Source: Kibdelosporangium persicum
Lineage (GTDB): Bacteria; Actinomycetota; Actinomycetes; Mycobacteriales; Pseudonocardiaceae
Length of the DNA stretch: 64,000 nt
Direction of reading: 5' to 3'
Assembly: GCF_013280595.1 (NCBI RefSeq)
Contig: NZ_JAAATY010000010.1
Span: 186,001-250,000 of the forward strand
Every line of letters begins with the position of its first letter. The first letter of the stretch is position 1. The translations under genes were made by a program, and so were the position numbers. A model generated the notes under the pieces. That model did not search any database, was not told where the DNA came from, and saw only the letters and a program-made list of their open reading frames with translations. This document shows, piece after piece, positions 2,271-47,273 of this stretch.

Positions 2271-2305
2271 ACGGTACCCACGCCGTTTTGACCATGGCAC
2301 CCCTA
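2271..2305 (-). promoter_or_regulatory. TAGGGG-type promoter for the PKS gene at 2214
   Basis: Read on the minus strand: TAGGGG (2305-2300), -35 hexamer TGCCAT (2299-2294), a 17 bp spacer, then -10 TACCGT (2276-2271). The predicted transcript start is near 2264, about 50 nt before the GTG start. The architecture is shared with eight other promoters in this window. This is inferred from sequence only. Confidence 0.7.
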
Positions 2306-2338
2306 GCGTGCCGCGGTCAGCGGGGATTCCAGGCCAGG

Positions 2339-2373
2339 TAGGGGTTGCGTGCGGCGAGGGGCGCTGGCACGTT
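2339..2373 (+). promoter_or_regulatory. TAGGGG-type promoter for the type II thioesterase
   Basis: TAGGGG (2339-2344) abuts -35 TTGCGT (2345-2350). A 17 bp spacer leads to -10 CACGTT (2368-2373), ending in the block CTGGCACGTTC that recurs at 42965 and, with one change, at 47264. It lies back to back with the PKS promoter at 2271-2305. Confidence 0.65.
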
Positions 2374-2421
2374 CACCGTAGAATTCGCAACAGTCGTGTG
2401 CGCGAGAATGAGGGCTCCAGA

Positions 2422-3213
2422 ATGAGCGGTGCGGAAAACATGACACTGGCACCCGGCGAAACAAGCGCATGGATTCGACGCTTTCACCCGGCACCGGAGG
2501 CCCGCACGCGGCTGGTGTGCCTGCCGCACGCCGGCGGCTCCGCACCGTATTTCTTTCCGGTGTCCAGGGCACTGGCGCCGGACATCGACGTACTGGCCGT
2601 CCAGTACCCGGGGCGGCAGGACCGGCGTGCGGAGAAGTGCATCGACAACATCGCCGAACTGGCCGACCACGTGGCGGGTCAGCTCACGGCGTGGGCCGAC
2701 AAGCCGCTGACTCTCTTCGGGCACAGCATGGGCGCGACGCTGGCGTTCGAGGTGGCCCGGCGGCTCGGCCCGGAGATGACGGTGCTCGGCGTGATCGCGT
2801 CCGGCCGATGTGCGCCGTCCAGCACGCGCTTCGACAACGTGCACAACCTCGACGACACCCGCCTCCTGGGCGAGTTACGGCTGTTGAGCGGCACTGACGC
2901 CCAGATCCTCGGTGACGAGGAGATCGTGCGGATGGTCCTGCCTGCGATCCGTGCCGACTACACCGCCGCGGAGACCTACCGGTGCGACCCCGGCGTCCGC
3001 ATCCCCTACCCGATCCTGACCATGATCGGCGACGACGATCCACGCGCCTCTCTCGACGAGGCCAGGGCGTGGGCCGGGCACACCGAGGCGGAGTTCGGCA
3101 TGCGGATCTTCCCCGGCGGCCACTTCTACCTGAACGACCACGCGGACGCCGTGATCACCACCGTCGCCGGGCAGATCGGCACCTGGTCGGCCGCTGTCTC
3201 CCCGGTGCGCTGA
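2422..3213 (+). CDS. Type II (editing) thioesterase, alpha/beta hydrolase
   Basis: The protein has 263 residues, the usual size for discrete thioesterases that hydrolyse misprimed or stalled acyl groups from PKS carrier domains. It shows VCLPHAGGSAPYFFP near the N-terminus, the nucleophile elbow GHSMG (about residue 95), and the catalytic His in FPGGHFYL near the C-terminus. The ATG at 2422 was chosen because GAGGG precedes it at good spacing and the upstream part of the open frame has no domain match. It is a single gene under its own TAGGGG-type promoter, divergent from a PKS gene, which fits a housekeeping role for this assembly line rather than macrocycle release; release is assigned to the TE fused to the PKS at 31483. 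Confidence 0.93.
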   Translation: MSGAENMTLAPGETSAWIRRFHPAPEARTRLVCLPHAGGSAPYFFPVSRALAPDIDVLAVQYPGRQDRRAEKCIDNIAELADHVAGQLTAWADKPLTLFGHSMGATLAFEVARRLGPEMTVLGVIASGRCAPSSTRFDNVHNLDDTRLLGELRLLSGTDAQILGDEEIVRMVLPAIRADYTAAETYRCDPGVRIPYPILTMIGDDDPRASLDEARAWAGHTEAEFGMRIFPGGHFYLNDHADAVITTVAGQIGTWSAAVSPVR

Positions 3214-3229
3214 ATCGCCAGAGCCTGCC

Positions 3230-3265
3230 GAGACGCCCGGCCGGGGTATCCCAGCCGGGCGTCTC
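3230..3265 (+). terminator. Terminator hairpin after the thioesterase gene
   Basis: A perfect 12 bp stem GAGACGCCCGGC / GCCGGGCGTCTC encloses a 12 nt loop, 17 nt after the stop codon of the thioesterase gene. Confidence 0.75.
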
Positions 3266-3355
3266 TCGTTCATCCGTTCATCCCAGGGTGTTTCACCTGC
3301 GTGGACGGCGCATGAACCACCTGCCGCCAGCAGAACGCCACCACCGGTGAGGATG

Positions 3356-3400
3356 CCCCTTTCCGCCCCGGCGAGGGGGGTTTCCGTGGGCGGAAAGGGG
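3356..3400 (-). terminator. Terminator hairpin after the ABC exporter operon
   Basis: A perfect 13 bp stem CCCCTTTCCGCCC / GGGCGGAAAGGGG with a 19 nt loop lies just past the stop of the minus-strand permease gene. With the hairpin at 3230-3265 it separates the convergent units. Confidence 0.7.
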
Positions 3401-3419
3401 CTGGGAAGGTGGTTCGTGG

Positions 3420-4217
3420 CTACCCGCGGGTGCGCCGGTTGAAAACGCGGACCGTCAGCAGCGCGGTCAGCACCAGGATCGGCACCCACCAGACGAGGGC
3501 CATCCAGGCGTTGTCGCCCAGCGGCGTGCCGATCAGCAACGACCGGATCGCGTTCACCACCGGCGTGAACGGCTGGTAGTCGACAAATGCCCGCAGCACT
3601 GACGGCATGCTCTCCGACGGCACGAGCGCGCTGCTCGCGTACGGGAGGAACACCAGGATCATCGCGTAGCCGCTCGCGGCCTCGACGCCGCCCGCGACCA
3701 CGCCGAGCAGGGTGGCGAGCCACGAGATCGCGGCCATGAACAGCACCAGCAGTCCGGCCGCCGCGAGCCATTCGCCGATGCCCGCCGTGGGCCTGAAGCC
3801 GACCACCATGCCGAGCCCGACCACCAGGATCACCGAGAGGACGTTGCGCAGCACCGAGGACACCACGTGCCCGACCAGCACCGAGAAGCCGAACATCGGC
3901 ATGGAACGGAACCGTTCCACGATGCCGTTCTGCAGGTCGTTGGCCACGCCCACGGCCGTGGCCGTCGCGCTGAACGCCACGCTGAGCACGACGACGCCGG
4001 CGATCACGTAGTTGACGTAACTCGGCCCGCCGGTGTTGATGGCGCCGCCGAACAGGTACCGGAACAGCAGCAACAGCATGATCGGCAGGGCGATCGCCTG
4101 GATGATCTCGTCGACGTTCCTGGTGAGGTGCCGCATGCTCCGGCGGATGAGCACTCGGCAGTCAGCGAGGGCGTGGCCGAACGAGGAGCGCTCCTGCGCC
4201 GCGATGGCCTGGGTCAT
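3420..4217 (-). CDS. ABC-2 type exporter, membrane (permease) subunit, DrrB-like
   Basis: The protein has 265 residues: a short cytoplasmic N-terminus followed by about six hydrophobic segments (first [19 protein letters not shown], then [18 protein letters not shown], and a C-terminal [17 protein letters not shown]). This is the ABC-2 permease fold of DrrB-type drug exporters. Its ATG overlaps the stop of the ATPase gene (ATGA), so the two are translationally coupled and form one exporter. The probable job is export of, and self-resistance to, the glycosylated polyketide; the substrate is an inference from location. The unit lacks the TAGGGG-type promoter of the biosynthetic operons and is more likely controlled by the divergent TetR protein. 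Confidence 0.9.
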
Positions 4218-5143
4218 TTCACAGCTCCCGGGGACTTGCTGGTCAGGGTGCGGAACACGTCGTCGAGGGTCGGCTGGTGCAGGGCGATCTGCCGAACCTC
4301 CAGCCCGGCCTCGGCCATCTGGTTCAGCAGGTGCCGGACGTCACCGGCGCTGTGCACGGGCACGCTGATGGTCTGCTGGTCGACCCGCTCGCCGCCGGAC
4401 AGCGCCTGCGCCTTCTGGATGTCGACCGGGTCGACGGTGAGTTCGGCGCGCTCGGCGCCGACCTGGCGCTTGAGCTCGCTCGCGGTGCCCTCGGCGACCA
4501 CCCGGCCCTGGTCGATCACGGCGATCCGGTTCGCGAGCTGGTCCGCCTCTTCGAGGTACTGGGTGGTCAGCAGGACCGTGGTGCCCGCCGCCATCAGCGA
4601 GCGGATGGTCTCCCACATCGCGATCCGGGCCGTGGGGTCCAGGCCGGTGGTCGGCTCGTCGAGGAACAGCACCGGCGGCCGGTTGATCAGGCTGACCGCG
4701 AGGTCCAGCCGGCGCCGCATGCCGCCCGAGTACGTCTTCGCCGGCCGGTCCGCGGCCTTGACCAGGTCGAACTGGTCAAGCAGCTCAGCGGCCCGCTGTT
4801 CGGCCCCGGCCCGGCTGATGCGGAACAGCTGGCCCATCATCACCAGGTTCTCCCGCCCGGTGAGCAGTTCGTCCACCGCGGTGTCCTGGCCGGTCAGCCC
4901 GATGATCCCGCGCACCGCCCGGGCCTGGGTCGTGACGTCGCGGCCCTCGATGGTGGCCGTGCCGCCGTCCGCCTTCAGCAGCGTGCTCAGAATGCGGACA
5001 GTCGTGGTCTTGCCCGCGCCGTTGGGCCCCAACAGTCCCAGCATGGTGCCGCGTTCGACCCGGAGGTCGATCGATTCCAGGACCGTCACGCTACCGAACG
5101 ACTTACGCAGTCCTCTTGCCTCGATCGCGTAACTGCTCACCAC
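4214..5143 (-). CDS. ABC exporter ATP-binding subunit, DrrA-like
   Basis: The protein has 309 residues. Walker A is [10 protein letters not shown] (about 40-49), the signature is [12 protein letters not shown], Walker B is [13 protein letters not shown], and the H-loop region reads [12 protein letters not shown]. The C-terminal extension ([13 protein letters not shown]... [12 protein letters not shown]) is the small domain typical of DrrA-type ATPases. It powers the permease encoded immediately downstream. The start at 5143 ([11 protein letters not shown]) places the first beta strand at the usual distance from Walker A; no alternative is clearly better. The gene is divergent from tetR across 101 bp. 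Confidence 0.93.
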
Positions 5144-5166
5144 CCGGTCACACCTCCCGTACCAAG

Positions 5167-5208
5167 AACTGTTTATGGCCTATACTCACGTTTAAGTGAT
5201 ACACAGTT
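5167..5208. promoter_or_regulatory. Probable TetR operator between exporter and tetR
   Basis: The short divergent region contains nested inverted repeats: outer arms AACTGT (5167-5172) and ACAGTT (5203-5208), and an inner imperfect pair TATACTCAC / TAAGTGATA (5181-5201). It is AT-rich relative to its surroundings. Its position suits repression of both directions by the TetR-family protein. Binding is inferred. Confidence 0.55.
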
Positions 5209-5244
5209 GCTGAGAGGATGTCAACCGGCGAGCAACGGAGAACC

Positions 5245-6009
5245 ATGCCAGCGGAGCGAAACGGCAGGGCCGGCCAGGTGACCAGCATGGAATTGCTGTG
5301 GGGTGACCGGGCCCAGCCGAGTAGGGGTCCCCGGCCGGGCCTCTCGGTGGAGAAAATCGCCACCACGGCCATCGAGATCGCCGACGAGGAAGGCCTCGAC
5401 GCGCTGTCCATGCAGCGCATCGCCAGCAAACTGGACTACTCGGCGATGTCGCTGTACCGGTACATCCCGGGCAAGGACCAGCTGATCGACGTCATCTACG
5501 ACACCGCGCTGGGCCAGCCGCCCGCCGACCTCGGCGAGGACTGGCGGTCAGGCGTCAGCGCGTGGGTGCGCGGCATGTTGTCGGTGTACGCGCAACACCC
5601 CTGGCTGCTGCGGATCAGCGTGAGCAACCCCCCGCTCGGCCCCAACCAGCTGACCTGGTTCAACTCGCTGCTCGAACTGGTCTCCGACATCGGCCTGGCC
5701 GAGGACGAGATGGTCCACCTGGTCATGTTCGCCACGTGCGCGGTCCGCGACCTGGCCAGGGTGTCCACCGAGCTCGCCCAGGGCCAGCAGCGCAGCGGCG
5801 GCTCGGTGGAGGAGATGGGTGAGGGGTACGCGCTGGCGATGAAGCGGTTCGTCGACGACACGCGGTTCCACGCCCTCGCGAAGGTGGTGTCGGCCGGCAC
5901 TTTCGAGCCGAGCGACACCCCCTACAACGAGATCATGCCCAGTCTGGATTTCGGGCTGCAGCGCCTGCTGGACGGCGTGGAGAGCTACGTCAACTCCCGC
6001 AAGGGCTGA
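5245..6009 (+). CDS. TetR-family transcriptional repressor of the exporter
   Basis: The N-terminal helix-turn-helix reads SMQRIASKLDYSAMSLYRYIPGKDQLIDVIYD, preceded by LSVEKIATTAIEIADEEGLDALS. The C-terminal ligand-binding domain is variable, as usual. Three in-frame ATGs are possible. 5218 has its purine tract directly against the start codon, 5245 has GGAG four bases upstream, and 5287 (MELLWGDRA) has AGGTG and would resemble the start of many relatives. I chose 5245 with low certainty. By analogy with divergent tetR/exporter pairs it should release the operator when it binds the cluster product or an intermediate. Confidence 0.88.
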   Translation: MPAERNGRAGQVTSMELLWGDRAQPSRGPRPGLSVEKIATTAIEIADEEGLDALSMQRIASKLDYSAMSLYRYIPGKDQLIDVIYDTALGQPPADLGEDWRSGVSAWVRGMLSVYAQHPWLLRISVSNPPLGPNQLTWFNSLLELVSDIGLAEDEMVHLVMFATCAVRDLARVSTELAQGQQRSGGSVEEMGEGYALAMKRFVDDTRFHALAKVVSAGTFEPSDTPYNEIMPSLDFGLQRLLDGVESYVNSRKG

Positions 6010-6018
6010 TCCGATCGG

Positions 6019-9000
6019 TCAGTCCACAGCCTCCACGCCACCCAGCGCCATGCTGATCAGCGCCTCGCTGTCCATCGCGTCGATCGACTCCTGGTCCCCG
6101 CCGGCGTCGGCCGTTGCCTGCTCGGCCCGCACGCCGGCGAGTTCGAGCAGGCTGTCCAGCAACCCGGCGTCCCGCAACCGGGACACCGGAATCGACGCCA
6201 GGATCTCACGCAGATCGTCCTCGGTCACCGCCTCAGCCGTCTCCTCCGCCGGGATGAGCTCCGTGCCCAGGTGCTCGGCCAGGACGCGCGGGCTGGGATA
6301 GTCGTAGATCATCCCGGCGGGCAGCTTCAGGCCCGTGACGAGCGTGAGCTTGTTGCGGAAGCCCATCGCGGACAGCGAGTCGAAGCCCACCTCGTTGAAC
6401 GGCCGGTCGGGGTCGATCTCCCCGGCGCCGGAGTAGCCCAGGATGCCGGCCGCGTGTGTCCGGACCAGGTCCAGCAGCGTGGGCATCCGCTTGTGCGGCG
6501 GCATCTCGGCCAGCCGCTCCCGCAGCGAACGACCCTCCACCGGGGCGTCCTGCGCCGCGCGCCGGGACCGCACGAGACCGCGGAACAAGGCGGGCAGTTC
6601 GTCGGCCGCCTGGTCCGCCCACGCTCGGGTGTCCACTCGGATCGGCAACAGCAGCGCCTCACCGAGCGCGGTGGCCGAGTCGAGCAGCGCCAGCCCTTCC
6701 TTTGTGGACAGAGCGCCGATGCCGGTGCTCGACAGCCGCGACGTGTCGGCCTTGCCCGCCATGCCGTCCTCGCCGGTGTCCCACAGGCCCCACGCCAACG
6801 ACGTTCCAGCCAGCCCGGCTGCCCTGCGCCGGGCGGCCAACGCGTCGAGGAACGCATTGGCAGCCGCGTAACTGCCCTGTCCGGGGGCACCGAGCACACC
6901 GGCGGCCGAGGAGAACAGCACGAACGCCGAAAGCCCTTCGGTCAGCTCGTGCAGGTTCAGCGCGGCGTCCACCTTCGGGCGTAGCACCGCGTCCACACGG
7001 TCCGGGGTGAGTGACGTGATCACCCCGTCGTCGAGTACACCGGCCGTGTGCACTACAGCGGTGACGGGATGCTCGGCGAGCATCGCGGCCACGGCGTCAC
7101 GGTCGGCGACGTCGCACGCGACGAGCGCCACCTGCGCACCGAGCCCGGTCAGTTCCTCTCGCAACTCGACGGCGCCGGGCGCGTCCGGGCCACGGCGGCT
7201 GGCGAGGACCAGGTTGCGGACGCCGTGCTCACCAGCCAGGTGCCGGGCGACCGCACTGCCAAGTGCACCGCTCGCGCCCGTGATCAGCACAGTGCCTTCG
7301 GAATCCCACGGTTGGCCCGTACCGGCGGCGACCCGGACCATGCGCGGCACGCGGACCATGCCGCGGCGAAGCGCCGACTGCGGCTCACCGGTGGCCACGG
7401 CGGTGGGCAGCATCCGGATCGACACGTCGATCATGCCTTCGTCGGCGTCCAGGTCCACCAGCACGATCCGGTCCGGGTGCTCGGCCTGGGCCGACCGCAC
7501 CAGCCCGGACACCGCGGCACCGGCCAGGTCGCCGGGGTTCTCGTCGTCACACGCCACCGCTCCCCTGGTCACCACGACGAGCCTGCCGCCGGGCCGGGCC
7601 AGGAAGTCCTGCATCACACCGAGAACCCGGTGGACCTCGCTGTGGACATCGCTGTGGGCATCGCCGCCGCAGGGCACGAGCAGCACACCGGTTTCCGGTA
7701 TGCCGGTGACGATCGGGGCGCCGAGCGCGCCGGCCAGGCCCCAGCGGTCCGGCCCGAGCAGGCTCCAGCCGGTCACGTCGGTCACTTCGTCCACTACGGA
7801 CCGCTGCCAGTCCACACCGAACAACGTGTCCGCGGCGGGCGGTGCGGCGGCTGGCCGGGCCTGGGCCGTCGACATCGGCCGCAGCAGCAGCGACCCGATC
7901 GACAGCACTGGCTGGCCGGTGGTGTCGGCGATGTCCAGGGACACCGTGCCGGTCCCGGCTGGCCGGACGTGCACCCGCAGGTTGCCGGTGCCGACCGCGT
8001 GCAGGCCCACCCGTTCGAACGAGAACGGCAGAACCGGCTCGTCACCGGCGGAGCCGCCACAGCCGATCGCGTGCAGCGCGGCGTCCAGCACCGCCGGATG
8101 GATGCCGTACTTGTCCACTTCGGACTGTACGGTGGCCGGGACGGCCACCTCGGCGAAGGTCTCGTCTCCGCGCTTCCACGCGGCGCGCAGCCCCTGGAAA
8201 GCCGGGCCGTACCCCAGTCCCTGCTCGGTGAGGCCGGCGTACATGCCGTCCAGCGGCACCTGCTCGGCACGCTCCGGCGGCCACTCGGTCAGGTCGAACG
8301 ACGCCCGCCCGCCATCCGGTGCCAGCACGCCGGTGGCGTGCCGGGTCCACGGCACGTGTTCACCGGCATCCTCGGTCCGTGAGTGCACGCTGAACCGGCG
8401 GCTGCCGGTCTCGTCCGGCGCGCTCACAGCGAACTGGACACGCACACCGGCACGGTCCGGCACCACCAAGGGCGCCTCGATGGTCAGTTCCGCCACCAGC
8501 CCGCAGCCGACCTCGTCCCCGGCACGGACCGCCATCTCCACCAGACCGGTGCCAGGGAACAGGATCGCGCGGCCGACCACGTGATCGGCGAGCCACGGGT
8601 GGGTGCCGACCGAGAGACGGCCGGTGAACAGCAGGCCGTCGGCGTCGGCGAGGTCGATCGCCGACCCCAGCAGCGGGTGTTCTTCGGGGCCAAGGCCACC
8701 GGCGACGGTCTCCAGCCAGTACCGCTGGCGTTGGAACGGGTACGTCGGCAATTCGACCAGGCGCCGCTCGCCGAACACGGCCTTCCAGTCCACGCTGACA
8801 CCGTCGCAGTGCAGGCGGCCGAGTGCGGTCAGCACCGAGTCCGGCTCGGCGTGGTCCTTGCGCAGCACCGGCGTGACCACCACGTCCTCCACGGCTTCGT
8901 CGGCGAGAGCGGCGAGGGTGCCGCCGGGGCCGACCTCCACGAACCTGGTCACCCCGAGGGCGTCCATCGTCTTGATGGCGTCGTGGAACCGTACCGGCTG

Positions 9001-12000
9001 ACGGACCTGCCGGACCCAGTACTCAGGCGTACAGAGGTCCTCGTCCGCGGCTCCGGTCACAGTGGACACGATCGGGATACGCGGCGGTGAGAACGTCAGT
9101 TTCCCCGCCACCCGGGCGAAGTCGTCCAGCATCGGGTCCATCGAGGACGAATGGAACGCGTGCGACACCCGCAACCGCCGGGTCCGCTCGAAGCCCTCGG
9201 CCATGGCGACGACCGCCTCCTGCGCGCCCGAGACGACCACCGAGTTCGGGCCGTTCACCGCGGCGATGTCCACCCCTGCGGTCAAGGCGGCCCGCACCCG
9301 CTCCTCGGACGCGGCGATCGCCACCATCGCGCCTCCCGCCGGCAACGCCTGCATCAGCTGGGCTCGCGCGGTGACCAGGGTGCAGGCATCGTCCAGGGAC
9401 AGCACGCCCGCCACGTGCGCGGCGGCCAGTTCGCCGATCGAGTGCCCGGCCACGAAGTCCGGCTTGATCCCCCACGACTCCAGCAACCGGTACAGCGCCA
9501 CCTCGACCGCGAACAACGCGGGCTGGGTGTGACCGGTCTGGTTCAACGCTTCGGGATCGTCGCCCCACAACACGCCGGACAGGTCAGCGTCCAAACGGGA
9601 CAGGACCTGGTCGAGGGCGGCGGCGAACACCGGGAACCGCCCGGCCAGCTCCCGGCCCATGCCCAGCCACTGGGAACCCTGGCCGGAGAACAGGAATCCG
9701 GTCCTGCCGCCCGAACGGGCCACGCCGTCCACGACGCCGGGCGCGTCCTCGCCGTCGACCAGCGCCATCAGGCCACGCAGGAACTCCGGGTACCGGCTGC
9801 CGACCACCGCCGCGCGGTACTCCAGCGCGGCCCGTGCGGTCGCCAGCGAGTAGCCGACGTCCGCGAGGTTCCGCTCGGGGTCGTCGTTCAGGTAGTTCAA
9901 CAGTTGCTCGGCCTGCGCGGCGAGCGCGGCCCGGCTGCGGCCGGAGATCAGCCAGGGCACGCTGCCGGGCTCCGCTTCCTCCGGTCGCGGTGCCACGGCA
10001 GGCGGCTCCTCGATGATCACGTGCGCGTTGGTCCCGCTGACGCCGAACGACGAGATCCCAGCCCGGCGCGGGTGGCCGTTGGCCTGCCACGGCACGGCCT
10101 CGGTCAGCAGCCGGACGTTGCCGGCCGACCAGTCCACCTCCGGCGACGGCTCGGTCACGTGCAGCGTCCTGGGCAGCTCCTCGTGCCGCATGGCCAGCAC
10201 CATCTTGATGATGCCCGCGGCACCGGCGGCGGCCTGGGTGTGACCGAGGTTCGACTTCACCGAACCGATCCACAGTGGACGGTCTGCCTGGCCGTAGGTG
10301 GCCATCAGGGCCTGTGCCTCGATCGGGTCGCCGAGCTTGGTCCCGGTGCCGTGCGCCTCGACGGCGTCCACATCGGACTCGGTCAGGCCCGCGGCGGCCA
10401 GCGCCTGGCGGATCACCCGCTGCTGGGCGGGACCGTTCGGCGCGGTCAGCCCGTTGGACATGCCGTCCTGGTTCACCGCGCTGCCCCGCACCACGGCGAG
10501 AATCGGATGCCCGGCGCGCTGTGCGTCCGACAGACGCTCGAGCACGATCAGCCCGACGCCCTCCGACCAGGAGGTGCCGTCGGCGTCGGCCGAGAACGCC
10601 TTGCACCGCCCGTCCGGCGCGAGACCGCCCTGACGGCTGAACTCGACGAAGGAGTCCGGCGCCGCCATCACCGCGACGCCGCCCGCGAGCGCCAGCGAGC
10701 AGTCGTCCTGCCGCAGTGCCTGCGCCGCGAGGTGCAGCGCCACCAACGATGACGAGCACGCCGTGTCCACGCTGACGGCAGGTCCGGCGAGCCCGAGGCT
10801 GTACGCGACCCGTCCGGTCACGATCGAGCCGGAACTGCTGGCGCCCGCGTAGTCGTGGTACTGCACACCGGCGTAGACACCGGTCTTGCTGCCCCGCAAC
10901 GACTGCGGGTCGATCCCGGCCCGCTCCAGCGCCTCCCACGCCGCCTCCAGCAGCAGCCGCTGCTGCGGGTCGATCATCGGCGCTTCCTTGGGCGCGACGC
11001 CGAAGAAGCCCGGGTCGAACTCGCCCGCGTCGTAGATGAACCCGCCTTCCCGCACGTAGCTCGTGCCGGGACGACGGCCGTCCGGGTCGAACAGCCCGTC
11101 GACGTTCCAGCCGCGGTCGGCCGGGAACTCGCCGATCGCGTCGCCTCCTTCGGCGAGCAACCGCCACAGGTCGTCGGGCGAACGGACACCGCCGGGCAAC
11201 CGGCAGGCCATCCCGACGATCGCGATCGGCTCGTCCTGACCGTTCGACCGGACCGTGACGGGTGCCGGCCCACGCGATCCGGACAGTTCCTCCTCCAGGT
11301 GACCGGCGAGCGCGTCCGGCGTCGGGTAGTCGAAGATCAACGTGGCCGGCAGCCGCAGCCCGGTCGCGGTGTTCAGGCCGTTGCGCAGCTCGATCGCGGT
11401 CAGCGAGTCGAAGCCGAGCTGGTGGAACTCCAGGGACGGATCGATGTCGGCCGCCGACTCGTGCGCGAGCACCGTGGCCGTGTGCGCGCGGACCAGGTCC
11501 AGCACGGCCGCACGGCGGTCGTCGGCGGGCATCTGGGCGAGCAGGTCGCTGAAGGACGACGAGGTCCGTTCGGCCCCACTGGCCGCGACCCGGCGCGATC
11601 CGCCGCCGACCAGGCTCTGCAACGCCTTCGCACCGGACGTCCGCAACGCGCCGAAGTCGAGTTTGACCGTCACGGCCGTGGGGTCGTCCGTACCGAGCGC
11701 GGCGTCGAACAGTGCGAGCCCGTCCGCCGGGGACAACGGGAGCATTCCGCTGCCCGCGTGCCTGGCCGTCTCCCCCATCCCGCCGACTTCGCTCCACAGG
11801 CCCCACGCCAGCGACAACGCGGGCTGCCCAGCGGCCCGGCGGTGAGTGGCGAGGGCGTCCAGGAAGGCGTTCGCCGCGGCGTAGTTGGCTTGCCCCGGCG
11901 CGCCGAGCACGCCGGAAACCGAGGAGTACAGCACAAAAGCCGAGAGCCCGTCAGTCAGCTCGTGCAGGTTGAGCGCGCCGTCGACCTTCGGCCGCAGCAC

Positions 12001-15000
12001 CGCGTCGAGCCGTTCCGGAGTGAGCGCGGTCAGCACGCCGTCATCAAGGACGCCGGCGGTGTGCACCACGGCAGTCAACGGGTGCTCCGCCGGGATCTCG
12101 GCGAGCACCGCGGCCAACGCCTCCCGATCCGCGACGTCACAGGCGATGGCCCGCACGTGCGCGTCGAGCTCGGCCAACCCGTCCGGTGTCGCGCCGCTGC
12201 GGCTGAGCAGCAGCAGGTTCCGGACGCCGTGCTCGGTGACCAGGTGCCTGGCGAGCACCCCGGCCAACGCACCCGAACCGCCCGTGATCAGCACCGTGCC
12301 GGTCCCGGCGTCGCCGCCGAACCGCGGCGCACCTCCGGCCGGGCTGACGCGTCCCAGCCTTGCCGCGTACGGCACGCCATCGCGGACCGCAACCTGCGGT
12401 TCGCCGGCCGTGATCACCGCGGGCAGCACGTCGTTGACCGTTTCCATGTCGTCGACGTCCAGCAGCACCAGCCGGTCCGGGTGCTCCGACTGGGCCGACC
12501 GGATCAGGCCCCACACCGCCGCACCGGCGAGATCCCGCACCGGCTCGCCGTCGACGGAGACAGCCCCGCTGGTCAGCAGCACCAGCGTGGTGGGCCCGGT
12601 GGCCTCGGCGAGCAACCAGGACTGCACAGCCTCCAGCACGTGCCGGGTCGCTGTCCGGACGGCTTGCGCGTCCATGCCCCGCTCGCTGCGCAGCAGCACG
12701 ACCTCCGGCCCGGCTTCCGCGGGCCTGGCCGGGATCGGCCGCCACTCCAGCCGGTACAGCGGGCGACTCGCCGCCGCCCCGGGCGCCAGGGCGCGGAACA
12801 CGTTCGACTCGATGGACGCGACCGGGCCACCGGCGGCGTCCGCGAGGGTCACCGCGAAGGTCTCGGGTGCGGTCTGGGTGAACCGCACCCGCAGCGCCGA
12901 AGCGCCGCTGGCGTGCAGTTCAACACCTGACCAGGAGAACGGGACGAGCCCGACACCTCCGTCACCGTCCCCGGCGGCCCGCAACGCGTGGGTCGCCGCG
13001 TCGAGGGCGGCCGGGTGCAGGCCGAACCGCTCGGCACCGTGCGGGGCGTCCTCGGGCAGGCGCACCTCGCCGAAAATCTCGTCACCACGGCGCCACGCCG
13101 CGTGCAGCGAACGGAAGACCGGGCCATAAACCAGGCCTGTACCCGCGAAGTTGTCGTACAGCTCGTCCAACGCGACCGGCTGCGCGTTCTCCGGCGGCCA
13201 CGGTGTCAGTTCGGCGCCGGGACGGCCGGTTGCCGGGGCCAGTGTCCCGGCGGCGTGTTGTGTCCACGGCTCGTCCGGCAGGGCGTCTTCCGGCTGCGCG
13301 TGCACGGTGACAGCGCGGCATCCGACCTCGTCGGCAGCGCCCACGGTGAGCTGGACGCGCACACCGCCGTGGCGGGGCAGCACGAGCGGGCTGCTCAGCG
13401 TCAACTCCTCGATGCGACCGCATCCGACCTGGTCACCGGCCTGCACCGCGAGTTCGACGAACGCGGTGCCCGGCACCATGATGTCCTCGCCGACCACGTG
13501 ATCCGCGAGCCACGGCTGCTGCCCGGCCGACAACCGGCCGGTCAGGACCACACCGTCGGTTCCGGCGAGTGTGATCGCCGCGCCCAGCAACGGGTGCCCG
13601 GCGGCGTGCAGCCCGGCGGAGGCGACCTCGTCCGGCCCGCCGCGACGTTCGAGCCAGTACCGCCGGTGCTGGAACGCGTAGGTCGGTAGCGGAATCCGCC
13701 GTGCGCCCCGGCCGGCGAACACAGCCTCCCAGTCCGGGTCGACGCCGCCCACGTACAGCTCCGACAACGCCGTCAGCACGGCGCCCGCCTCGGCTCGGTC
13801 CTTGCGCAGCAAGGGAAGCACGGCGGCTTCGGCGGTCAGGCATTCCCGGGCCAGCGGAGCCAGCACGCCATCCGGCCCGACCTCGACGAACCGGGTCGCA
13901 CCGGCAGCCTCCAGCGCACCCATGCCGTCACGGAACCGGACCGCGTCGCGGACGTGCCGAACCCAGTACTCCGGAGTGCGCAGCTCGTCGGCCGTCGCCA
14001 GTTCACCGGTCACATTGGACACGACCGGAATCCGCGGAGCCTGGTAGACCAAGCCTTTCGCCACGGACGTGAACTCGTCGAGCATGTCGTCCATGCGGGG
14101 CGAGTGGAACGCGTGCGACACGCGCAGCCGTTTGTTCTTACGCCCCAACCGCTCCGCGATCGCCAGGACAGCGTCCTCATCGCCCGACACGACAACGGAC
14201 GTCGGGCCGTTGATCGCCGCGATGCTCACCCGCTCGGTCAGCAGCGGGCGCACCTCGTCCTCGGTCGCCTGGACCGCGACCATGGCGCCACCGGACGGCA
14301 ACGCCTGCATGAGCTTGCCGCGTGCGGCGACCAGGGCGCACGCGTCCGCCAGCGAAAGCACTCCGGCGACGTGTGCCGCGACCAGTTCGCCGATGGAGTG
14401 GCCCATCAGCAGATCCGGTGTGACGCCCCAGGATTCGAGCAGCCGGAACAGCGCGACCTCGACGGCGAACAACGCGGGCTGCGTGTATTCCGTCTGGTCG
14501 AGCAGTTCGCCGTCTCCGAAGACCACGTCCCGCAGCGGACGGTCGAGGTGCTCGTCGAAGACGCCGCACACGGTGTCCAGGGCCTCGGCGAAGACCGGGA
14601 AGATCCCGTGCAGCTCGCGGCCCATGCCCGCGCGCTGGGCGCCCTGCCCGGAGAACAGGAACGCCGTCAGCCCCTGGCTCACCGACCCGGTGATCACACC
14701 GGGTTCGCCGTGGACGAGCGCGTCGAGGCCCCGGCCGGCTGTGGCGGAATCCGTGGCGAGGACCACCGCACGGTGTTGCAGCGGTGATCTGGTGGTGGCA
14801 AGCGAGTACCCGAGATCCAGCGTTCCCACAAAGTCCACAATGGACTTGAGGCGTTCGGCCTGCGCCCGCAGGGCCGCGGCGCTCTGCCCGGTGACAGGCA
14901 GCGGAACGGCCACGTCGGCAGGCCAGTTCGGCGGCTCGACCGGCGTGGGCTCCTCGTCCGGTGCCTCTTCGAGGATCACGTGCGCGTTGGTGCCGCTCAC

Positions 15001-16347
15001 GCCGAACGAGGACACTCCGGCGCGTCGGGGATGTCCGGCCCGGTCCCAGGGGCGCTCGTGGTCCAGCAGCCGGACCGCGCCCGCCGACCAGTCGACCTCG
15101 CCGGACGGGCTGGACACGTGCAACGTCCTGGGCAGCACCCCGTGCCGCATCGCCAGCACCATCTTGATGACGCCGCTGATCCCGGCCGCGGCCTGGGCAT
15201 GCCCGATGTTGGACTTGACCGAGCCGAGCCACAACGGGCGGTCCGCCGGACGGTCCGCGCCGTACGTGGCGAGCAGGGCGCTCGCCTCGATCGGATCACC
15301 GAGCGTGGTGCCCGTGCCGTGGCCCTCCACCGCGTCGACTTCGGTGGGGGAAAGCTGTGCGTTGGTCAGTGCCTGCCGGATCACCCGCTGCTGGGAAAGC
15401 CCGTTCGGAGCGGTGAGCCCGTTGGACGCACCATCGGAGTTGATCGCCGAGCCGCGCACGACCGCGAGGATGGGATGACCGTTGCGCCGCGCGTCGGACA
15501 GCCGCTCCAACAGCAACGTCCCGGCGCCTTCCGACCAGCCGGTGCCGTCCGCGTCGTCCGAGAACGCCTTGCACCGCCCGTCCGGGGCGAGCCCCCGCTG
15601 CCTGCTGAAGGCCTGGAACGGAGAAGGCGTCGCCATCACCATCACGCCACCGGCGAGCGCGAGCGAGCATTCCCGCTGCCGCAACGCCTGACAGGCCACG
15701 TGCAGCGCCACCAGCGACGACGAACAAGCCGTGTCGATCGTGACGGCCGGGCCTTCGAGACCCAGCGAGTACGCGATCCGGCCGGAGATGACCGAACCTG
15801 CGGTGCCCGTGCTGAGGTAGTCGTCGCCGACGTCGGCCATGTGCGTGGGCGCTACGCCGTCGTAGTAGTCCTGGCTGCCGCTGCCGATGAACACACCCAC
15901 GGCCGCTGCCCGCAACGAGTGCGGCGCGATCCCGGCCCGCTCGACCGCCTCCCAGGCCAGTTCGAGCGCCATCCGCTGCTGCGGATCGATCGCCAACGCC
16001 TCCCGCGGCGAGATGCCGAACAGGCCCGCGTCGAAAGCACCGGCGTCGTGGACGAACCCGCCCTGGCTGACGTAACTGGTGCCCGGCCGGTCCGGGTCGG
16101 CATCGAACAGGCTGCCGGCGTCCCAGCCACGGTCGGTGGGGAACGGGCCGATCGTGTCCACGCCTTCGGCGACCACCCGCCACAGGTCCTCCGGCGACCG
16201 GACGCCACCGGGGAAACGGCAGCTCATCGAGACGATCGCGATCGGCTCCTGCTCGGCGGTCTCCAGCTCGCGCAGCCGTTCGCGGGTCTGGTGCAGCGTC
16301 GCGGTGACCCGCTTGAGATAGCCGACGAGTTTCTCTTCGTTGTCCAT
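6019..16347 (-). CDS. Type I PKS, two modules: KS-AT(mal)-DH-KR-ACP-KS-AT(mal)-DH-KR-ACP
   Basis: The protein has 3442 residues with no loading domain and no thioesterase. Approximate order: N-terminal coiled-coil docking 1-33, KS1 35-455 (TACSSS at about 206), AT1 560-860 (GHSIGE, HAFH: malonyl), DH1 920-1190 ([22 protein letters not shown]), KR1 1345-1530 (AGVLDDG: B-type), ACP1 1615-1690 ([11 protein letters not shown]), KS2 1705-2110, AT2 2215-2510 (GHSIGE, HAFH: malonyl), DH2 2560-2830 ([21 protein letters not shown]), KR2 3015-3195 (AGVLDDG: B-type), ACP2 3285-3360, C-terminal docking 3375-3442. All catalytic residues I checked are present. B-type KR plus DH predicts two successive trans double bonds, a conjugated diene. 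The ATG at 16347 directly follows the stop codon of the upstream PKS gene (TAGATG), so the two are co-transcribed and probably consecutive in the assembly line. Confidence 0.95.
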
Positions 16348-21114
<4,767 letters not shown>

Positions 21115-21221
21115 CGCGGCCCCGTTCACGAGATGCCCAATTCGTCCGGTTCGACAGGGGACGAGCTCGTCATCCGTGGCGGACCCGAGGTCCCGTTCGA
21201 AACGCCGAAGCGCCACGCCGA

Positions 21222-21288
21222 ACGCTACCCAGCGGGAGAACCCGCACCCACCCCTAAAACTCGGCGCGCCCGGCCGGACGCCCCCTTA
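21222..21288 (-). promoter_or_regulatory. TAGGGG-type promoter for the two-gene PKS operon (21114 to 6019)
   Basis: On the minus strand: TAGGGG (21256-21251), -35 TGGGTG (21250-21245), a 17 bp spacer, -10 TAGCGT (21227-21222). The predicted start is near 21215, giving a leader of about 100 nt. A second, related box (TTAAGGGGG, 21290-21281) sits 31 bp upstream on the same strand. The promoter lies between the GT-like gene and the PKS gene, so the PKS operon does not depend on read-through. Confidence 0.72.
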
Positions 21289-21298: not shown

Positions 21299-22273
21299 TC
21301 AGCGGGCGCGCGATCCGGCGATGCGTGCCAGTTCCGGCACGAGCTCTCGCGGCGAAGGCATCGCCGCCATCTCCGCGCCCAGCCGCCGCGCGTTCTCCGG
21401 CAGGCTTGCGTCGTCCACAAGCTTCTCGAGCGCCGGTCCGTCCGCTTGCCCGGCGACGAGACCGGCGCCGTGCTCCGCGATCCGCGCGGCGAGCCCCGAA
21501 GCGCCGACCGCCAGCTGCGGCAGGCCGTTCGTCAACGCGGCCATCGCCTGCGCGGCGGTGCCGTCGTGCACGATCGCGGCGCACGTGGGCAACACCGCGT
21601 CCACCGGGACGGCGTCGAAGAACCGGACGTTCGCGGGAATGGTTGTCCCGGACGGGATCTGGTCTTCGGCGAGCGTGCAGACCAGCTCAATCCTCAGCCG
21701 CGCCGCCGTGTCGAACAGCGCTGGATCAAGCACCGTGCCGGACAGCCCGGCGGCATCCTGCGTGGTCACAAGCACGCGGCGCCTGCGCGGTTTGCGGCGC
21801 AGCCACGCGGGAATCACCGACGGTCCCGAGTAATGCACGTAACGGACCGGCAGATGGCCGGTGTCCTCCGGTGCTCGCAGCGACGGGGGAAGGCAGTTCA
21901 CGGTCGCGTCCGGTACGGGACCACCAGCCGGGCCGTCGTCGTCGGACGGGTTGAGCACCCGGACGCTTGCCGCCCCGACCGCCCGCGCCACTTCAGCCCC
22001 CGCGGGGGCGTGCGCGTCCCACACCACCAGGCTCGGTCGCCACAGCGCCGCGTAGGACGTCAGATCGTCCACATCGGACTCGCCGGCCAGCCGGTCACCC
22101 GAGCCGTCAGTGCCCGCGGCGACAGCGACGAACCCGGTCGTCGTGATCGTCTCGGTGAACTTGGGCCGCCCGGCGATCTGCACCTCGTGCCCGGACGTGC
22201 GCAGTGCCCACGCCAAAGGCATCAGGTTGTGCAGTCGCGCAGTCGAAGGCGGCGCGGCCAGCAGAACGCGCAT
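21299..22273 (-). CDS. Compact EryCIII/DesVII-family glycosyltransferase-like protein, probably non-catalytic
   Basis: The protein has 324 residues; active members of this GT-B family are about 400-430. The N-terminus MRVLLAAPPSTARLHNLMPLAWALRTSGHEV is clearly of this family. However, the position holding His in the intact paralogue (KAHMYNVVSLAW at 29146) is Arg here (ARLHNLMPLAW). The donor-binding segment, HQAGFGT in the intact paralogue, is HDGTAAQ. The following PDPFWDE-type sugar-contact block is missing (GLPQLAVGASGLAARI). I therefore read it as a degenerate partner protein for another glycosyltransferase, but a changed catalytic mechanism cannot be excluded. GGAAGGG precedes the ATG. 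It is transcribed alone from a TAGGGG-type promoter and is divergent from the deoxysugar operon. Confidence 0.85.
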   Translation of the reverse strand: MRVLLAAPPSTARLHNLMPLAWALRTSGHEVQIAGRPKFTETITTTGFVAVAAGTDGSGDRLAGESDVDDLTSYAALWRPSLVVWDAHAPAGAEVARAVGAASVRVLNPSDDDGPAGGPVPDATVNCLPPSLRAPEDTGHLPVRYVHYSGPSVIPAWLRRKPRRRRVLVTTQDAAGLSGTVLDPALFDTAARLRIELVCTLAEDQIPSGTTIPANVRFFDAVPVDAVLPTCAAIVHDGTAAQAMAALTNGLPQLAVGASGLAARIAEHGAGLVAGQADGPALEKLVDDASLPENARRLGAEMAAMPSPRELVPELARIAGSRAR

Positions 22274-22301: not shown

Positions 22302-22336
22302 ACGATATCCCGGGCCCGCCGCCCAGCGGACCCCTA
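22302..22336 (-). promoter_or_regulatory. TAGGGG-type promoter for the GT-like gene at 22273
   Basis: On the minus strand: TAGGGG (22336-22331), -35 TCCGCT (22330-22325), a 17 bp spacer, -10 TATCGT (22307-22302). The expected leader is about 22 nt. It is paired back to back with the deoxysugar operon promoter. Confidence 0.7.
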
Positions 22337-22350: not shown

Positions 22351-22448
22351 TAGGGGTACGCCTGCTCGATGACCGAGCACGGCCCACCCGGCAGGCCGCC
22401 GACCGGGCTGGTTAGGGGTTGGCCGGGTTGTCGGCACGGCCATAGGCT
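22351..22448 (+). promoter_or_regulatory. TAGGGG-type promoter for the deoxyaminosugar operon, with an extra upstream box
   Basis: TAGGGG (22413-22418) abuts -35 TTGGCC (22419-22424). An 18 bp spacer leads to -10 TAGGCT (22443-22448). A second TAGGGG (22351-22356) lies 62 bp upstream in the same orientation and has no matching -10 of its own. The predicted leader before the ATG at 22556 is about 100 nt. Confidence 0.68.
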
Positions 22449-31482: not shown

Positions 31483-42729
<11,247 letters not shown>

Positions 42730-42847
42730 GCCCACGTAACCCTCGCGTTTGCCGTCGCGGACCCGCTCGCGCGCGCCGGCGATTTTTCGGAAATCTCGGC
42801 GAAACCGCACGACTCAACCGCGTCAGTTGGTTGTATTCCAGCGAGCC

Positions 42848-42882
42848 ACATTACGAGCGCGGGCACCGCACACCCACCCCTA
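42848..42882 (-). promoter_or_regulatory. TAGGGG-type promoter for the terminal PKS/glycosyltransferase operon
   Basis: On the minus strand: TAGGGG (42882-42877), -35 TGGGTG (42876-42871), a 17 bp spacer, -10 TAATGT (42853-42848). A second box, AGGGGT (42903-42898), lies 21 bp upstream. The predicted leader is about 112 nt. Confidence 0.72.
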
Positions 42883-42939: not shown

Positions 42940-42974
42940 TAGGGGTTGTCGGCCCATTGGGCGGCTGGCACATT
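42940..42974 (+). promoter_or_regulatory. TAGGGG-type promoter for the methoxymalonyl-ACP operon
   Basis: TAGGGG (42940-42945) abuts -35 TTGTCG (42946-42951). A 17 bp spacer leads to -10 CACATT (42969-42974), within the block CTGGCACATTC shared with the thioesterase promoter. The whole 42730-43037 gap is accounted for by this divergent promoter pair and the two leaders. Confidence 0.7.
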
Positions 42975-43904: not shown

Positions 43905-44191
43905 CGATCAACGAGGCCGCCACGCCGGCGCTGGCGGCGCAGATCCAGGCCGGGCTGCTGGCCTTCCTCGAGGCCAAGACGAAGCAGGTCGTCGCGCCCG
44001 GCCAGGACATCTTCGGCACCGGGCTGGCCACGTCCATGTTCGCGCTCGAACTGGTGGTCCACCTCGAAGGCACCTACGGCATCGAGATCGCCGGTCCGGA
44101 CCTGCGGCTGGAGCACTTCCGGACGGTCGAGAAGATGACGGCGCTGACGCTGCGGCTGAAGGCCGAAGCCGAGTCGACCGACAGTGCCTGA
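43901..44191 (+). CDS. fkbJ: Discrete acyl carrier protein for methoxymalonyl-ACP (FkbJ-like)
   Basis: The protein has 96 residues from GTG 43901, overlapping the preceding stop. The carrier motif is divergent (FGTGLATSMFALELVVHLE), with Ser42 of ATSMFALEL as the phosphopantetheine site in place of the usual DSL. This divergence is what is seen in the dedicated carriers that hold the glyceryl-derived unit while it is oxidised and methylated, before the AT of the PKS takes it. It overlaps the next gene by eight bases. Confidence 0.92.
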   Translation: MTINEAATPALAAQIQAGLLAFLEAKTKQVVAPGQDIFGTGLATSMFALELVVHLEGTYGIEIAGPDLRLEHFRTVEKMTALTLRLKAEAESTDSA

Positions 44192-45293: not shown

Positions 45294-45307
45294 CTCATGG
45301 AGGACTC

Positions 45308-46402
45308 GTGCCCGATCGGCCGACCATGATCAAATGCCTGGTCTGGGACCTGGACAACACGTTGTGGGACGGGACGCTGCTGGAGGACGAGCAGGTCGAG
45401 TTCGCCGAGGCGGTCCGTGACGTGGTCCGTGCCCTGGACTCGCGCGGCATCCTCCAGTCCGTGGCCAGCAAGAACGACCACGACCTCGCCTGGCGCAAGC
45501 TGGAGGAGCTCGGCGTGGCCGAGTACTTCGTCGTGCCGCGGATCGGCTGGGGCCGCAAGTCCGACTCGGTCAAGGCGATCGCCGACCAGCTGAAATTCGC
45601 GCTCGACACCATCGCGTTCGTCGACGACCAGCCGGCCGAGCGAGCCGAGGTCGCGTACCACCACCCCGCCGTGCGCTGCTACTCCGCCGAGGACGTGCTC
45701 ACGCTGACCGGGCTGCCGGAGTTCAGCCCGGCGACCGTCACGGTGGACTCCGCCCGGCGCAGGCAGATGTACCAGGCCAACATGCGGCGGGAACAGGAAC
45801 AGGCCGCGTTCACCGGCCCGGACGAGGATTTCCTCCGGTCACTGGACCTGGTCATCCGGATCGGCCGGGCAGGTGACGAGGAGATCACCCGCGTCGAGGA
45901 GCTGACGCTGCGCACCAGCCAGATGAACGCCACCGGCGTGCACTACCCGGACTCGGTGCTGCGGTCCCTGATCGACGACCCGCGCCACGAGGTGCTGACC
46001 GCGACCATGTCCGACCGGTTCGGGCCGCACGGCGCGGTCGGCGTGCTGCTGCTGGAAAAGCACCCGTCGGTGTGGAACCTCAAGCTGCTGGCCACCTCGT
46101 GCCGGGTGGTCAGCTTCGGGGCCGGATCGGTGATCCTGAACTGGATCAGCGACCAGGCGGCACGGGCGGGTGTGCACCTCGTGGCCGACTTCCGGCGCAC
46201 CGAACGCAACCGGATGATGGAAGTGGCCTACCGCTTCGCCGGCTACGAGACCAGTTCGTGCGCGTGCGTCGCCGAAGTCAGCCGTGACGGCCGCGACGAC
46301 ATCGAACTGCTCCACCTGGTTCCCGCCAGGCAGGCTCCGCCGTCCACCATGACTTTGACCGCCCCGGATCTCGCCGCCGGCCCGTTGACGGCGGCGCACT
46401 GA
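45308..46402 (+). CDS. fkbH: FkbH-like HAD-superfamily glyceryl transferase/phosphatase
   Basis: The protein has 364 residues. The N-terminal HAD domain has the phosphoaspartate motif WDLDNTLWDG and the later FVDDQPAERAEV. The C-terminal half is the acyl-transfer-like domain typical of FkbH proteins (LTLRTSQMNATGVHY, MSDRFGPHGAVGVLLL, NRMMEVAYRFAGY). Such enzymes load 1,3-bisphosphoglycerate onto the discrete ACP with dephosphorylation, the committed first step of methoxymalonyl-ACP synthesis. The GTG at 45308 has GGAGG at ideal spacing; an internal ATG at 45326 is less well placed. Confidence 0.95.
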   Translation: MPDRPTMIKCLVWDLDNTLWDGTLLEDEQVEFAEAVRDVVRALDSRGILQSVASKNDHDLAWRKLEELGVAEYFVVPRIGWGRKSDSVKAIADQLKFALDTIAFVDDQPAERAEVAYHHPAVRCYSAEDVLTLTGLPEFSPATVTVDSARRRQMYQANMRREQEQAAFTGPDEDFLRSLDLVIRIGRAGDEEITRVEELTLRTSQMNATGVHYPDSVLRSLIDDPRHEVLTATMSDRFGPHGAVGVLLLEKHPSVWNLKLLATSCRVVSFGAGSVILNWISDQAARAGVHLVADFRRTERNRMMEVAYRFAGYETSSCACVAEVSRDGRDDIELLHLVPARQAPPSTMTLTAPDLAAGPLTAAH

Positions 46403-46419
46403 CCCCTGAAGGCCCCGAC

Positions 46420-46449
46420 GGCCCGGAGCGCGGTCAGCGCTTCCGGGCC
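46420..46449. terminator. Terminator hairpin between convergent fkbH and fkbG
   Basis: GGCCCGGAGCGC pairs with GCGCTTCCGGGCC (one bulged base, 5 nt loop). It overlaps the 3-prime end of the minus-strand fkbG gene and can serve both directions. Confidence 0.6.
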
Positions 46450-47114
46450 AGGGTGATGCCGTCGGCGAACGGCAGCATCGAGATGTCGACCCGGTCGTCG
46501 TCCCGGAGCAAGGTGTTGAGCTCCCGGATGGCGGCCGTTTCCGCGTCCTGGGCGGCCGGGTCGGCCACCCTGCCGAAGAACAGCGTGTTGTCCACGACGA
46601 TGAGGCCACCCGGCCGCACCAACGGCAGGACGTCCTCGTAGTAGCGCGGGTAGTTCGTCTTGTCCGCGTCGATGAACGCCAGATCCACCGTGCCGGTCAC
46701 GCCTTCGTCGCGCAGCCGCGCGAGAGTCGCCGTGGCGTCCCCGACCATGAGCTCGATCCGGTCGGCCACCCCGGCCCGCTCCCAGTAGGACCGGCCGATC
46801 TTCGCCCACCGGGGGGTGATGTCGCACGTGATCACCCGGCCGCCCGGTGGGAGCGCGCGGGCCAGGCACAGCGTGCTGTACCCGGTGAACGTGCCGATCT
46901 CCAGCACCGTGCGCGCACCGATCAGACCGGCCAGCAAGGAAAGCAGCTGCCCTTCCTCGGCCAGCACCTGCATCGCCGTCCCGGCAGGCAGCTGCGCGGT
47001 CTCCTCGCGCAGCCCGGCGAGGATCTCGTCCTCGCGCAGCGAAACGTCCCGAACATAGGACAGCAGCTCACGCCCGGCCGTCACCTGATCCGCCACAGTC
47101 AACTCCATCGTCAT
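46434..47114 (-). CDS. fkbG: SAM-dependent O-methyltransferase for methoxymalonyl-ACP (FkbG-like)
   Basis: The protein has 226 residues of the class I, caffeoyl-CoA O-methyltransferase-like fold: [20 protein letters not shown] (SAM motif I), [13 protein letters not shown], and [32 protein letters not shown]. It methylates the hydroxyl of the ACP-bound hydroxymalonyl unit. It completes the five-function methoxymalonyl set but is on the opposite strand with its own TAGGGG-type promoter. Two starts are possible, 47114 (MTMEL) and 47108 (MEL); neither has a clear ribosome site, and the predicted leader is only 13-19 nt. Confidence 0.92.
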
Positions 47115-47133
47115 GAGCCAGTTCTGGTTGGCG

Positions 47134-47169
47134 ACACTACGAGCTGACGCGCCGCGCACCCCACCCCTA
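47134..47169 (-). promoter_or_regulatory. TAGGGG-type promoter for fkbG, with a second adjacent box
   Basis: On the minus strand: TAGGGG (47169-47164), -35 TGGGGT (47163-47158), an 18 bp spacer, -10 TAGTGT (47139-47134). A second box (TTAAGGGGG, 47182-47174) lies 11 bp upstream in the same orientation. Confidence 0.7.
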
Positions 47170-47237
47170 CCGACCCCCTTAACAAGCGCGCACGGTCACC
47201 GAGAAATCAGCCAAACCGCAGGTGAAGCTGCAATTGG

Positions 47238-47273
47238 TAGGGGTTGTGCGACCGGTCCGCGCGCTGGCAGATT
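47238..47273 (+). promoter_or_regulatory. TAGGGG-type promoter for the amino-pentose operon
   Basis: TAGGGG (47238-47243) abuts -35 TTGTGC (47244-47249). An 18 bp spacer leads to -10 CAGATT (47268-47273) within CTGGCAGATTC. It lies back to back with the fkbG promoter. Confidence 0.68.

What the first reader, a model, noticed from the sequence alone, without database searches (positions are those of the whole stretch)
2271..47273. A shared promoter grammar: TAGGGG box abutting -35, 17-18 bp spacer, (T/C)AnnnT -10, at nine promoters
Nine sites follow one layout. TAGGGG is immediately followed by a -35 hexamer, then 17 or 18 bp, then a -10. Minus-strand cases: TACCGT (2271), TAGCGT (21222), TATCGT (22302), TAATGT (42848), TAGTGT (47134). 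Plus-strand cases: CACGTT (2368), TAGGCT (22443), CACATT (42969), CAGATT (47268). They sit before every biosynthetic operon in the window and form four back-to-back pairs. The ABC/TetR pair and the genes right of 54011 lack it. An activator box touching -35 is the classical class II arrangement. The LAL regulator at 51126 is the only pathway activator present. I know of no published LAL consensus with this form, so the box may be undescribed.
Basis: partly seen in the sequence, partly recalled or inferred. Interest (0 to 1): 0.85.

Follow-up and report, generated by a model that had tools for sequence, protein, structure and literature searches.

The report
Shared activator box at antibiotic-cluster promoters
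The operons of a large antibiotic-type gene cluster start with the same short DNA word at a fixed distance from the promoter, and the same arrangement recurs beside the same class of regulator gene in many other actinobacteria, so it is very probably that regulator's landing site; the core word seems to have been reported before for one relative, but its fixed position and wide use make it a handy key for predicting which genes such regulators switch on.

Summary
All nine sites have TAGGGG followed 23 or 24 bp later by (T/C)AnnnT. The full word is TAGGGGT, the most over-represented 7-mer of the cluster (18 found, 1.16 expected), and the set continues into the 20 kb left of the window.

Around homologues of the window's LAL regulator in 25 other genomes, TAGGGGT occurs 131 times against 25.8 expected; the reversed word gives 92 against 86.9. 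A further neighbourhood (G389), without sites, was not in that count. At 46 of these 131 sites a -10-like hexamer starts exactly 23/24 bp downstream; other offsets are rare. Extra upstream copies are phased near 10.5 bp. Loci from a class-wide draw repeat the pattern. Other PKS-bearing DNA of the own genome has no box in 230 kb.

Best reading: the LAL at 51126 activates the biosynthetic operons from a MalT-like class II site. Binding itself is not shown. The core is probably not undescribed: I recall SlnR (salinomycin LAL) footprints on ACCCCT (= AGGGGT) direct repeats, in a paper I could not open. New here: wide spread and fixed register to -10.

The parts
2271..2305 (-). TAGGGG box (2305-2300), gap 23, -10 TACCGT (2276-2271); before a PKS gene reading left
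2339..2373 (+). TAGGGG box (2339-2344), TTG, gap 23, -10 CACGTT (2368-2373); before a thioesterase gene (2422-3213)
21222..21256 (-). TAGGGG box (21256-21251), gap 23, -10 TAGCGT; before PKS genes 16348-21216 and 6019-16347
22302..22336 (-). TAGGGG box (22336-22331), gap 23, -10 TATCGT; before a glycosyltransferase-family gene (21299-22273)
22351..22357 (+). additional TAGGGGT without a -10 in register, 62 bp upstream of the 22413 box
22413..22448 (+). TAGGGG box (22413-22418), TTG, gap 24, -10 TAGGCT (22443-22448); before deoxyaminosugar genes (22556 onwards)
42848..42882 (-). TAGGGG box (42882-42877), gap 23, -10 TAATGT; a further AGGGGT copy 21 bp upstream; before PKS gene 31483-42810
42940..42974 (+). 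TAGGGG box (42940-42945), TTG, gap 23, -10 CACATT (42969-42974); before 3-hydroxyacyl-CoA and acyl-CoA dehydrogenase genes
47134..47169 (-). TAGGGG box (47169-47164), gap 24, -10 TAGTGT; a further AAGGGG copy 11 bp upstream; before an O-methyltransferase gene
47238..47273 (+). TAGGGG box (47238-47243), TTG, gap 24, -10 CAGATT (47268-47273); before PIG-L deacetylase, UDP-sugar dehydrogenase and epimerase/decarboxylase-like genes
51126..54011 (+). LAL regulator, 961 aa, AAA_16 (res. 40-193) and LuxR/GerE HTH (res. 894-946); proposed reader of the boxes; no box before it

Best explanation
TAGGGGT is the operator of the cluster-situated LAL regulator encoded at 51126-54011. [quoted passage not shown] There it contacts RNA polymerase at a promoter with a poor or partial -35 (class II activation, as at MalT promoters). 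Further AGGGG copies one or two helical turns upstream at some promoters probably take further protomers, as expected of an ATP-dependent oligomeric activator. One regulator thus switches on the PKS, sugar, extender-unit and tailoring operons together, but shows no box before its own gene. Shown: the boxes, their enrichment, the fixed register to -10 across genomes, the association with LAL genes, the phasing. Inferred: that the LAL binds, that the -10s are used, the class II contact and the oligomer.
For: Enrichment around LAL homologues in 25 other genomes: 131 against 25.8, reversed-word control 92 against 86.9; 18 of 25 neighbourhoods at p < 0.05 uncorrected. Register: 56 of 149 boxes (46 of the 131 outside the own genome) have (T/C)AnnnT at gap 23/24, mean 0.95 per offset over gaps 8-21 and 27-32; 44 of 117 after dropping similar promoters. 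Further 27 LAL loci: 28 boxes against 4.9, 6 of 28 in register. No box in 230,300 bases of other PKS-bearing own DNA. Phased upstream copies, R = 0.64, n = 30. Named relatives L001 (LAL 58% identical) and L002 (48%) have the layout. Precedent: in Actinoplanes a MalT-like activator's motif overlaps -35 and ends 34.4 +/- 1.0 nt before mapped starts (PMC7567727, abstract and passages).
Against: No binding or transcript data. Seven of 25 LAL neighbourhoods are not enriched (G342, G322, G294, G377, G204, G224, G174) and an eighth, G389, fetched but left out of that count, has 0 in 40 kb. The second LAL of the own genome (C13, 35% identical), although next to PKS genes and with a very similar recognition helix, has 1 box in 100 kb. 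Of 149 boxes 93 lack a -10-like hexamer in register. Known LAL-type sites differ in form: MalT GGGGA(T/G)GAGG, Actinoplanes TCATCC-N5-GGATGA, a putative inverted repeat for FkbN.
Confidence: 0.8

Rival explanations
1. The box is read by another regulator, encoded elsewhere, that co-controls such clusters, and the LAL acts differently.
For: Several LAL neighbourhoods, including the own C13 one, lack the box; binding is unproven. A TetR-like gene (5218-6009) is also in the cluster.
Against: Genomes were chosen by homology to the LAL alone, and the box is enriched around that gene; the TetR-like gene has no such box in its own promoter gap, and TetR proteins usually bind palindromes and repress (general knowledge).
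Confidence: 0.13
2. TAGGGGT is part of the promoter itself, the upstream element of an alternative sigma factor.
For: Fixed distance to -10.
Against: 23/24 bp is too long for a -35 to -10 spacer, while the hexamers fit an ordinary 17/18-bp spacing; box copies also occur in phased tandem upstream and, as at 22351, without a -10; the association is with LAL genes.
Confidence: 0.05
3. Chance or shared ancestry of a few promoters.
For: TAGGGG alone is only about two-fold enriched in the window; related clusters share promoters.
Against: Reversed word at expectation; first of 12,364 7-mers; 44 of 117 sites keep the register after dropping similar promoters.
Confidence: 0.02

Closest known systems
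SlnR, LAL activator of salinomycin biosynthesis (Zhu et al. 2017, doi 10.1007/s00253-016-7918-5; paper not held, its motif is recalled)
   Same: LAL activator of a type I PKS cluster; recalled footprint consensus is a direct repeat of ACCCCT, i.e. AGGGGT on the other strand; recalled not to activate its own gene.
   Different: Here the core is TAGGGGT, often a single box, with a 23/24-bp register to -10; SlnR sites were not seen and not aligned.
MalT boxes of E. coli/Klebsiella and the MalT-like regulator of Actinoplanes (PMC7567727, abstract and passages)
   Same: LuxR-type ATP-dependent large activator, G-rich box overlapping/abutting -35, similar distance to the start site; direct-repeat pairs in the enterobacterial case (title of Vidal-Ingigliardi et al. 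1991, seen in a reference list).
   Different: Box sequence: GGGGA(T/G)GAGG or TCATCC-N5-GGATGA against TAGGGGT; sugar regulon or MRLGR against a PKS cluster.
PimM-type PAS-LuxR operators (consensus CTVGGGAWWTCCCBAG, recalled)
   Same: LuxR-type HTH, TAGGG-like half-site, polyketide activator.
   Different: Inverted repeat; the nine boxes here have no inverted partner directly downstream.

Membership tests
LAL regulators (regulator at 51126) | Large protein with N-terminal AAA/Walker ATPase domain | tested here: met
   961 aa; PF13191 AAA_16 E 7.6e-12, residues 40-193
LAL regulators (regulator at 51126) | C-terminal LuxR-type HTH | tested here: met
   PF00196 GerE E 3.2e-12, residues 894-946
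LAL regulators (regulator at 51126) | Activates the adjacent cluster | not testable with these tools
   needs deletion or reporter data
SlnR-type LAL operator | AGGGGT core (recalled) | tested here: met
   nine of nine promoter boxes read TAGGGGT; the definition itself is recalled
SlnR-type LAL operator | Direct repeat of the core | tested here: inconclusive
   In the window a second AGGGG copy stands 11 bp upstream at 47169 and 21 bp upstream at 42882; across genomes copies are phased but occur at a minority of boxes
MalT-like class II activation | Box at fixed position abutting -35 | tested here: met
   gap 23/24 to the -10-like hexamer; start sites not mapped
MalT-like class II activation | MalT box sequence GGGGA(T/G)GAGG | tested here: not met
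   boxes read TAGGGGT(T/G/C); MalT box from PMC7567727 passages
PimM PAS-LuxR operator | Inverted repeat CTVGGGAWWTCCCBAG (recalled) | tested here: not met
   no inverted partner directly downstream at the nine sites printed
SARP / SARP-LAL operator | Heptamer direct repeats such as CGGCAAG in 11-bp units | not tested
   no scan for the heptamer was run; the box differs from the PimR heptamer given in PMC5930380 (passages), and the regulator's Pfam matches are AAA_16 and GerE only

The most novel reading that the evidence does not exclude
TAGGGGT placed 23/24 bp before the -10 is a general operator code of actinobacterial polyketide LAL regulators, carried by a nearly invariant recognition helix across several families, so that LAL regulons (silent clusters included) can be read from sequence and LALs may cross-activate each other's clusters.
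Probability: 0.55. Interest if true: 0.65.

Novelty: new member of a known kind. Interest (0 to 1): 0.48.

Why it matters
LAL activators control many macrolide, macrolactam and polyether clusters, and passages that I read say that the sequences recognised by GdmRI/GdmRII have still to be elucidated (PMC6784220) and that a consensus for SCO6993 could not be predicted (PMC9628970). A box with a fixed register gives a testable rule: it names target operons, helps to delimit clusters (here it moves the left border by up to 20 kb), and predicts which silent clusters an over-expressed LAL should switch on.

Tried and rejected
Chance was rejected with shuffles, the reversed word, genome-wide counts and an unbiased word count. 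A generic PKS-promoter signal is made unlikely by 0 boxes in 230,300 bases of other PKS-bearing own DNA, 4.05 expected; that control is weak because such DNA is mostly coding. A printed LAL consensus of this form was looked for in ten literature searches. I saw none in the listings; one search listed 25 of 43 papers, one search listed 20 of 828. The paper that I recall as holding the core (SlnR) is not held. A search of solved structures gave 8 sequences, all HTH-only matches (GerE and response regulators), no LAL. No structure was predicted.

Left out of counts. G389 (L099, L100; 40 kb, 0 boxes) is not in the 25-genome count. Of 55 other genomes of the order with a match, 24 were counted, picked from the top of the ranking; among the top ones G327 (8.6-kb contig), G014, G393 and G378 were not fetched in full. 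Loci L012-L040 were listed but not pooled. The 149 boxes include the 18 of the own cluster. The class-wide expectation uses the mean rate of 10 genomes, not that of every locus's genome; five of its 28 boxes look like one recurring coding sequence, and one locus (L192) is from the own family. The own background contains neighbourhoods of more distant LAL homologues (on C1, C5, C8, C13, C14, C46). The recognition-helix comparison found the frames by a STVE.HL-like pattern, so part of the identity is by construction; one of 31 loci (G355) gave no match. Genome sizes other than the own are rounded in the tool's answers.
Full report
Observation. TAGGGG occurs 15 times in the window against 7.92 expected; 2 of 100 shuffles reach 15. 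The four plus-strand promoters (2339, 22413, 42940, 47238) have TTG overlapping the end of TAGGGGT, and three of them share GCTGG-CA(C/G)(A/G)TT. The five minus-strand ones have no -35 consensus, and two of them share GCTCG-TA(A/G)TGT. So the common elements are TAGGGGT and the -10 region; the -35 is often poor, as expected of activator-dependent promoters.

More than chance. The whole genome (10,350,595 bases) has 182 TAGGGGT. The window plus the 20 kb to its left has 18 in 84 kb, 1.48 expected, p = 4e-14. Of the 12,364 7-mers seen there TAGGGGT is the most over-represented (18 against 1.16; next best p = 1e-5). The complete layout occurs 10 times in these 84 kb and once in 780 kb of other own DNA. 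By a rough coding mask the density in non-coding DNA is 122 per 100 kb in the cluster, 41 in the relatives' LAL neighbourhoods and 4.0 in the own background.

Extent. The left neighbour L043 (G000:C10:166001-186000) has six TAGGGGT; one has the 23/24-bp layout (8282, minus). Genes there include an alpha/beta hydrolase, an aminotransferase-fold enzyme, a VinK-type acyltransferase, a P450, a penicillin amidase, two AMP-binding enzymes and a carrier protein. With the PKS, deoxyaminosugar, O-methyltransferase and 3-hydroxyacyl-CoA/acyl-CoA dehydrogenase genes of the window this resembles a beta-amino-acid-primed glycosylated macrolactam cluster of the vicenistatin/incednine kind (recalled comparison, not tested).

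Who reads it. Among the 27 frames of the window scanned against Pfam, the regulators that I identified are the LAL (AAA_16 plus GerE) and a TetR-like protein. Of 397 genomes of the order, 56 (the own included) match the LAL at E <= 1e-100. I fetched 35-100 kb around the LAL in 24 of the 55 others, plus S. atroolivaceus (found), and compared box counts with each genome's own rate. Result: 131 boxes, 25.8 expected; reversed word 92, 86.9 expected; 18 of 25 neighbourhoods at p < 0.05 uncorrected. Seven are not enriched: G342, G322, G294, G377, G204, G224, G174. One more neighbourhood, G389, was fetched, had no box in 40 kb and is not in the count. In the own genome 230,300 bases of other PKS-bearing DNA hold no box, 4.05 expected; the 100 kb up to and including the second LAL (C13) and its PKS hold one. 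So not every LAL uses the box.

Register. Over 149 boxes near LAL genes (18 of them the own cluster's), a (T/C)AnnnT hexamer starts 23 bp after TAGGGG at 21 and 24 bp after it at 35. Offsets 8-21 and 27-32 average 0.95; small excesses stand at 25 (5) and 33-35 (4, 7, 3), the latter one helical turn further on. Outside the own genome 46 of 131 boxes are in register. After dropping similar promoters 44 of 117 are; of 17 background boxes 2 are. A further set of 27 LAL loci from a class-wide draw gave 28 boxes in 152,490 bases, 4.9 expected, control 7 against 12.6; -10-like hits at gaps 8-39 were one at 23, five at 24 and one at 29. The streptomycete L001 (LAL 58% identical) has TAGGGG-TTGCCC-N18-CACATTCGTGCC, close to the window's 42940 promoter (N17), and Micromonospora L002 (48%) has a divergent pair of the same kind.

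Architecture. Upstream of the de-duplicated boxes, further AGGGG words cluster at 9-13 (15 cases) and 20-23 bp (7 cases); the phase at 10.5 bp over 8-45 bp has R = 0.64, n = 30, p about 5e-6. Some of these are pairs of boxes counted from the downstream member. This suggests tandem protomers on one face of the DNA. With the usual numbering TAGGGGT ends at about -35/-36. In Actinoplanes the motif of a MalT-like activator ends 34.4 +/- 1.0 nt from mapped starts and overlaps -35 (PMC7567727, abstract and passages). [quoted passage not shown] 1991) was seen in a reference list. The recognition helix (ITVSTVEQHLTRVYRKL and close variants) is nearly the same in 30 of 31 LAL loci and 27 of 27; frames were found by a STVE.HL-like pattern, so part of this is by construction. 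It fits a shared box but does not explain the LALs without one.

Comparison with what is known. Passages read say that GdmRI/GdmRII sites remain to be elucidated (PMC6784220), that FkbN was given a putative inverted repeat similar to PimM's (PMC6022917), that MilR acts directly on the milA4-E and milF promoters (PMC5015266), and that LodR3 activates several promoters but could not be made soluble (PMC10100954). I recall that SlnR footprints define the direct repeat ACCCCT, the complement of AGGGGT; the paper is cited in PMC7105598 but not held. If that recollection is right, the core is known and this is a new member with a sharper definition. In the listings and passages that I saw, no paper states the 23/24-bp rule or its spread (searches).

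Verdict. Observation confirmed and extended; LAL reading well supported but not proven; novelty moderate.

Noticed in passing
51126-54011 (TTA at 51210, 51450, 51741, 51885): The LAL gene has four in-frame TTA codons in a 70% G+C window, which in streptomycetes would suggest bldA-type control of the activator.
   Followed up: no
window 1-51000 and L043: Gene content (VinK-type acyltransferase, penicillin amidase, AMP-binding enzymes, aminosugar and 3-hydroxyacyl-CoA/acyl-CoA dehydrogenase genes) looks like a glycosylated macrolactam cluster of the incednine/vicenistatin kind (the comparison is recalled).
   Followed up: partly
L043:8282 (-): A box with a -10 in register lies inside the 3' end of an AMP-binding gene; its predicted start falls at the ATG of the penicillin amidase gene (8240), so that transcript may be leaderless.
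   Followed up: no
54566-55633 (-): A terpene synthase gene lies right of the LAL; no box precedes it, so it is probably outside the regulon.
   Followed up: no
G000:C46:51153-53285: Another LAL homologue of the own genome is matched in three pieces, the last with a TGA inside, so it may be broken or mis-assembled.
   Followed up: no
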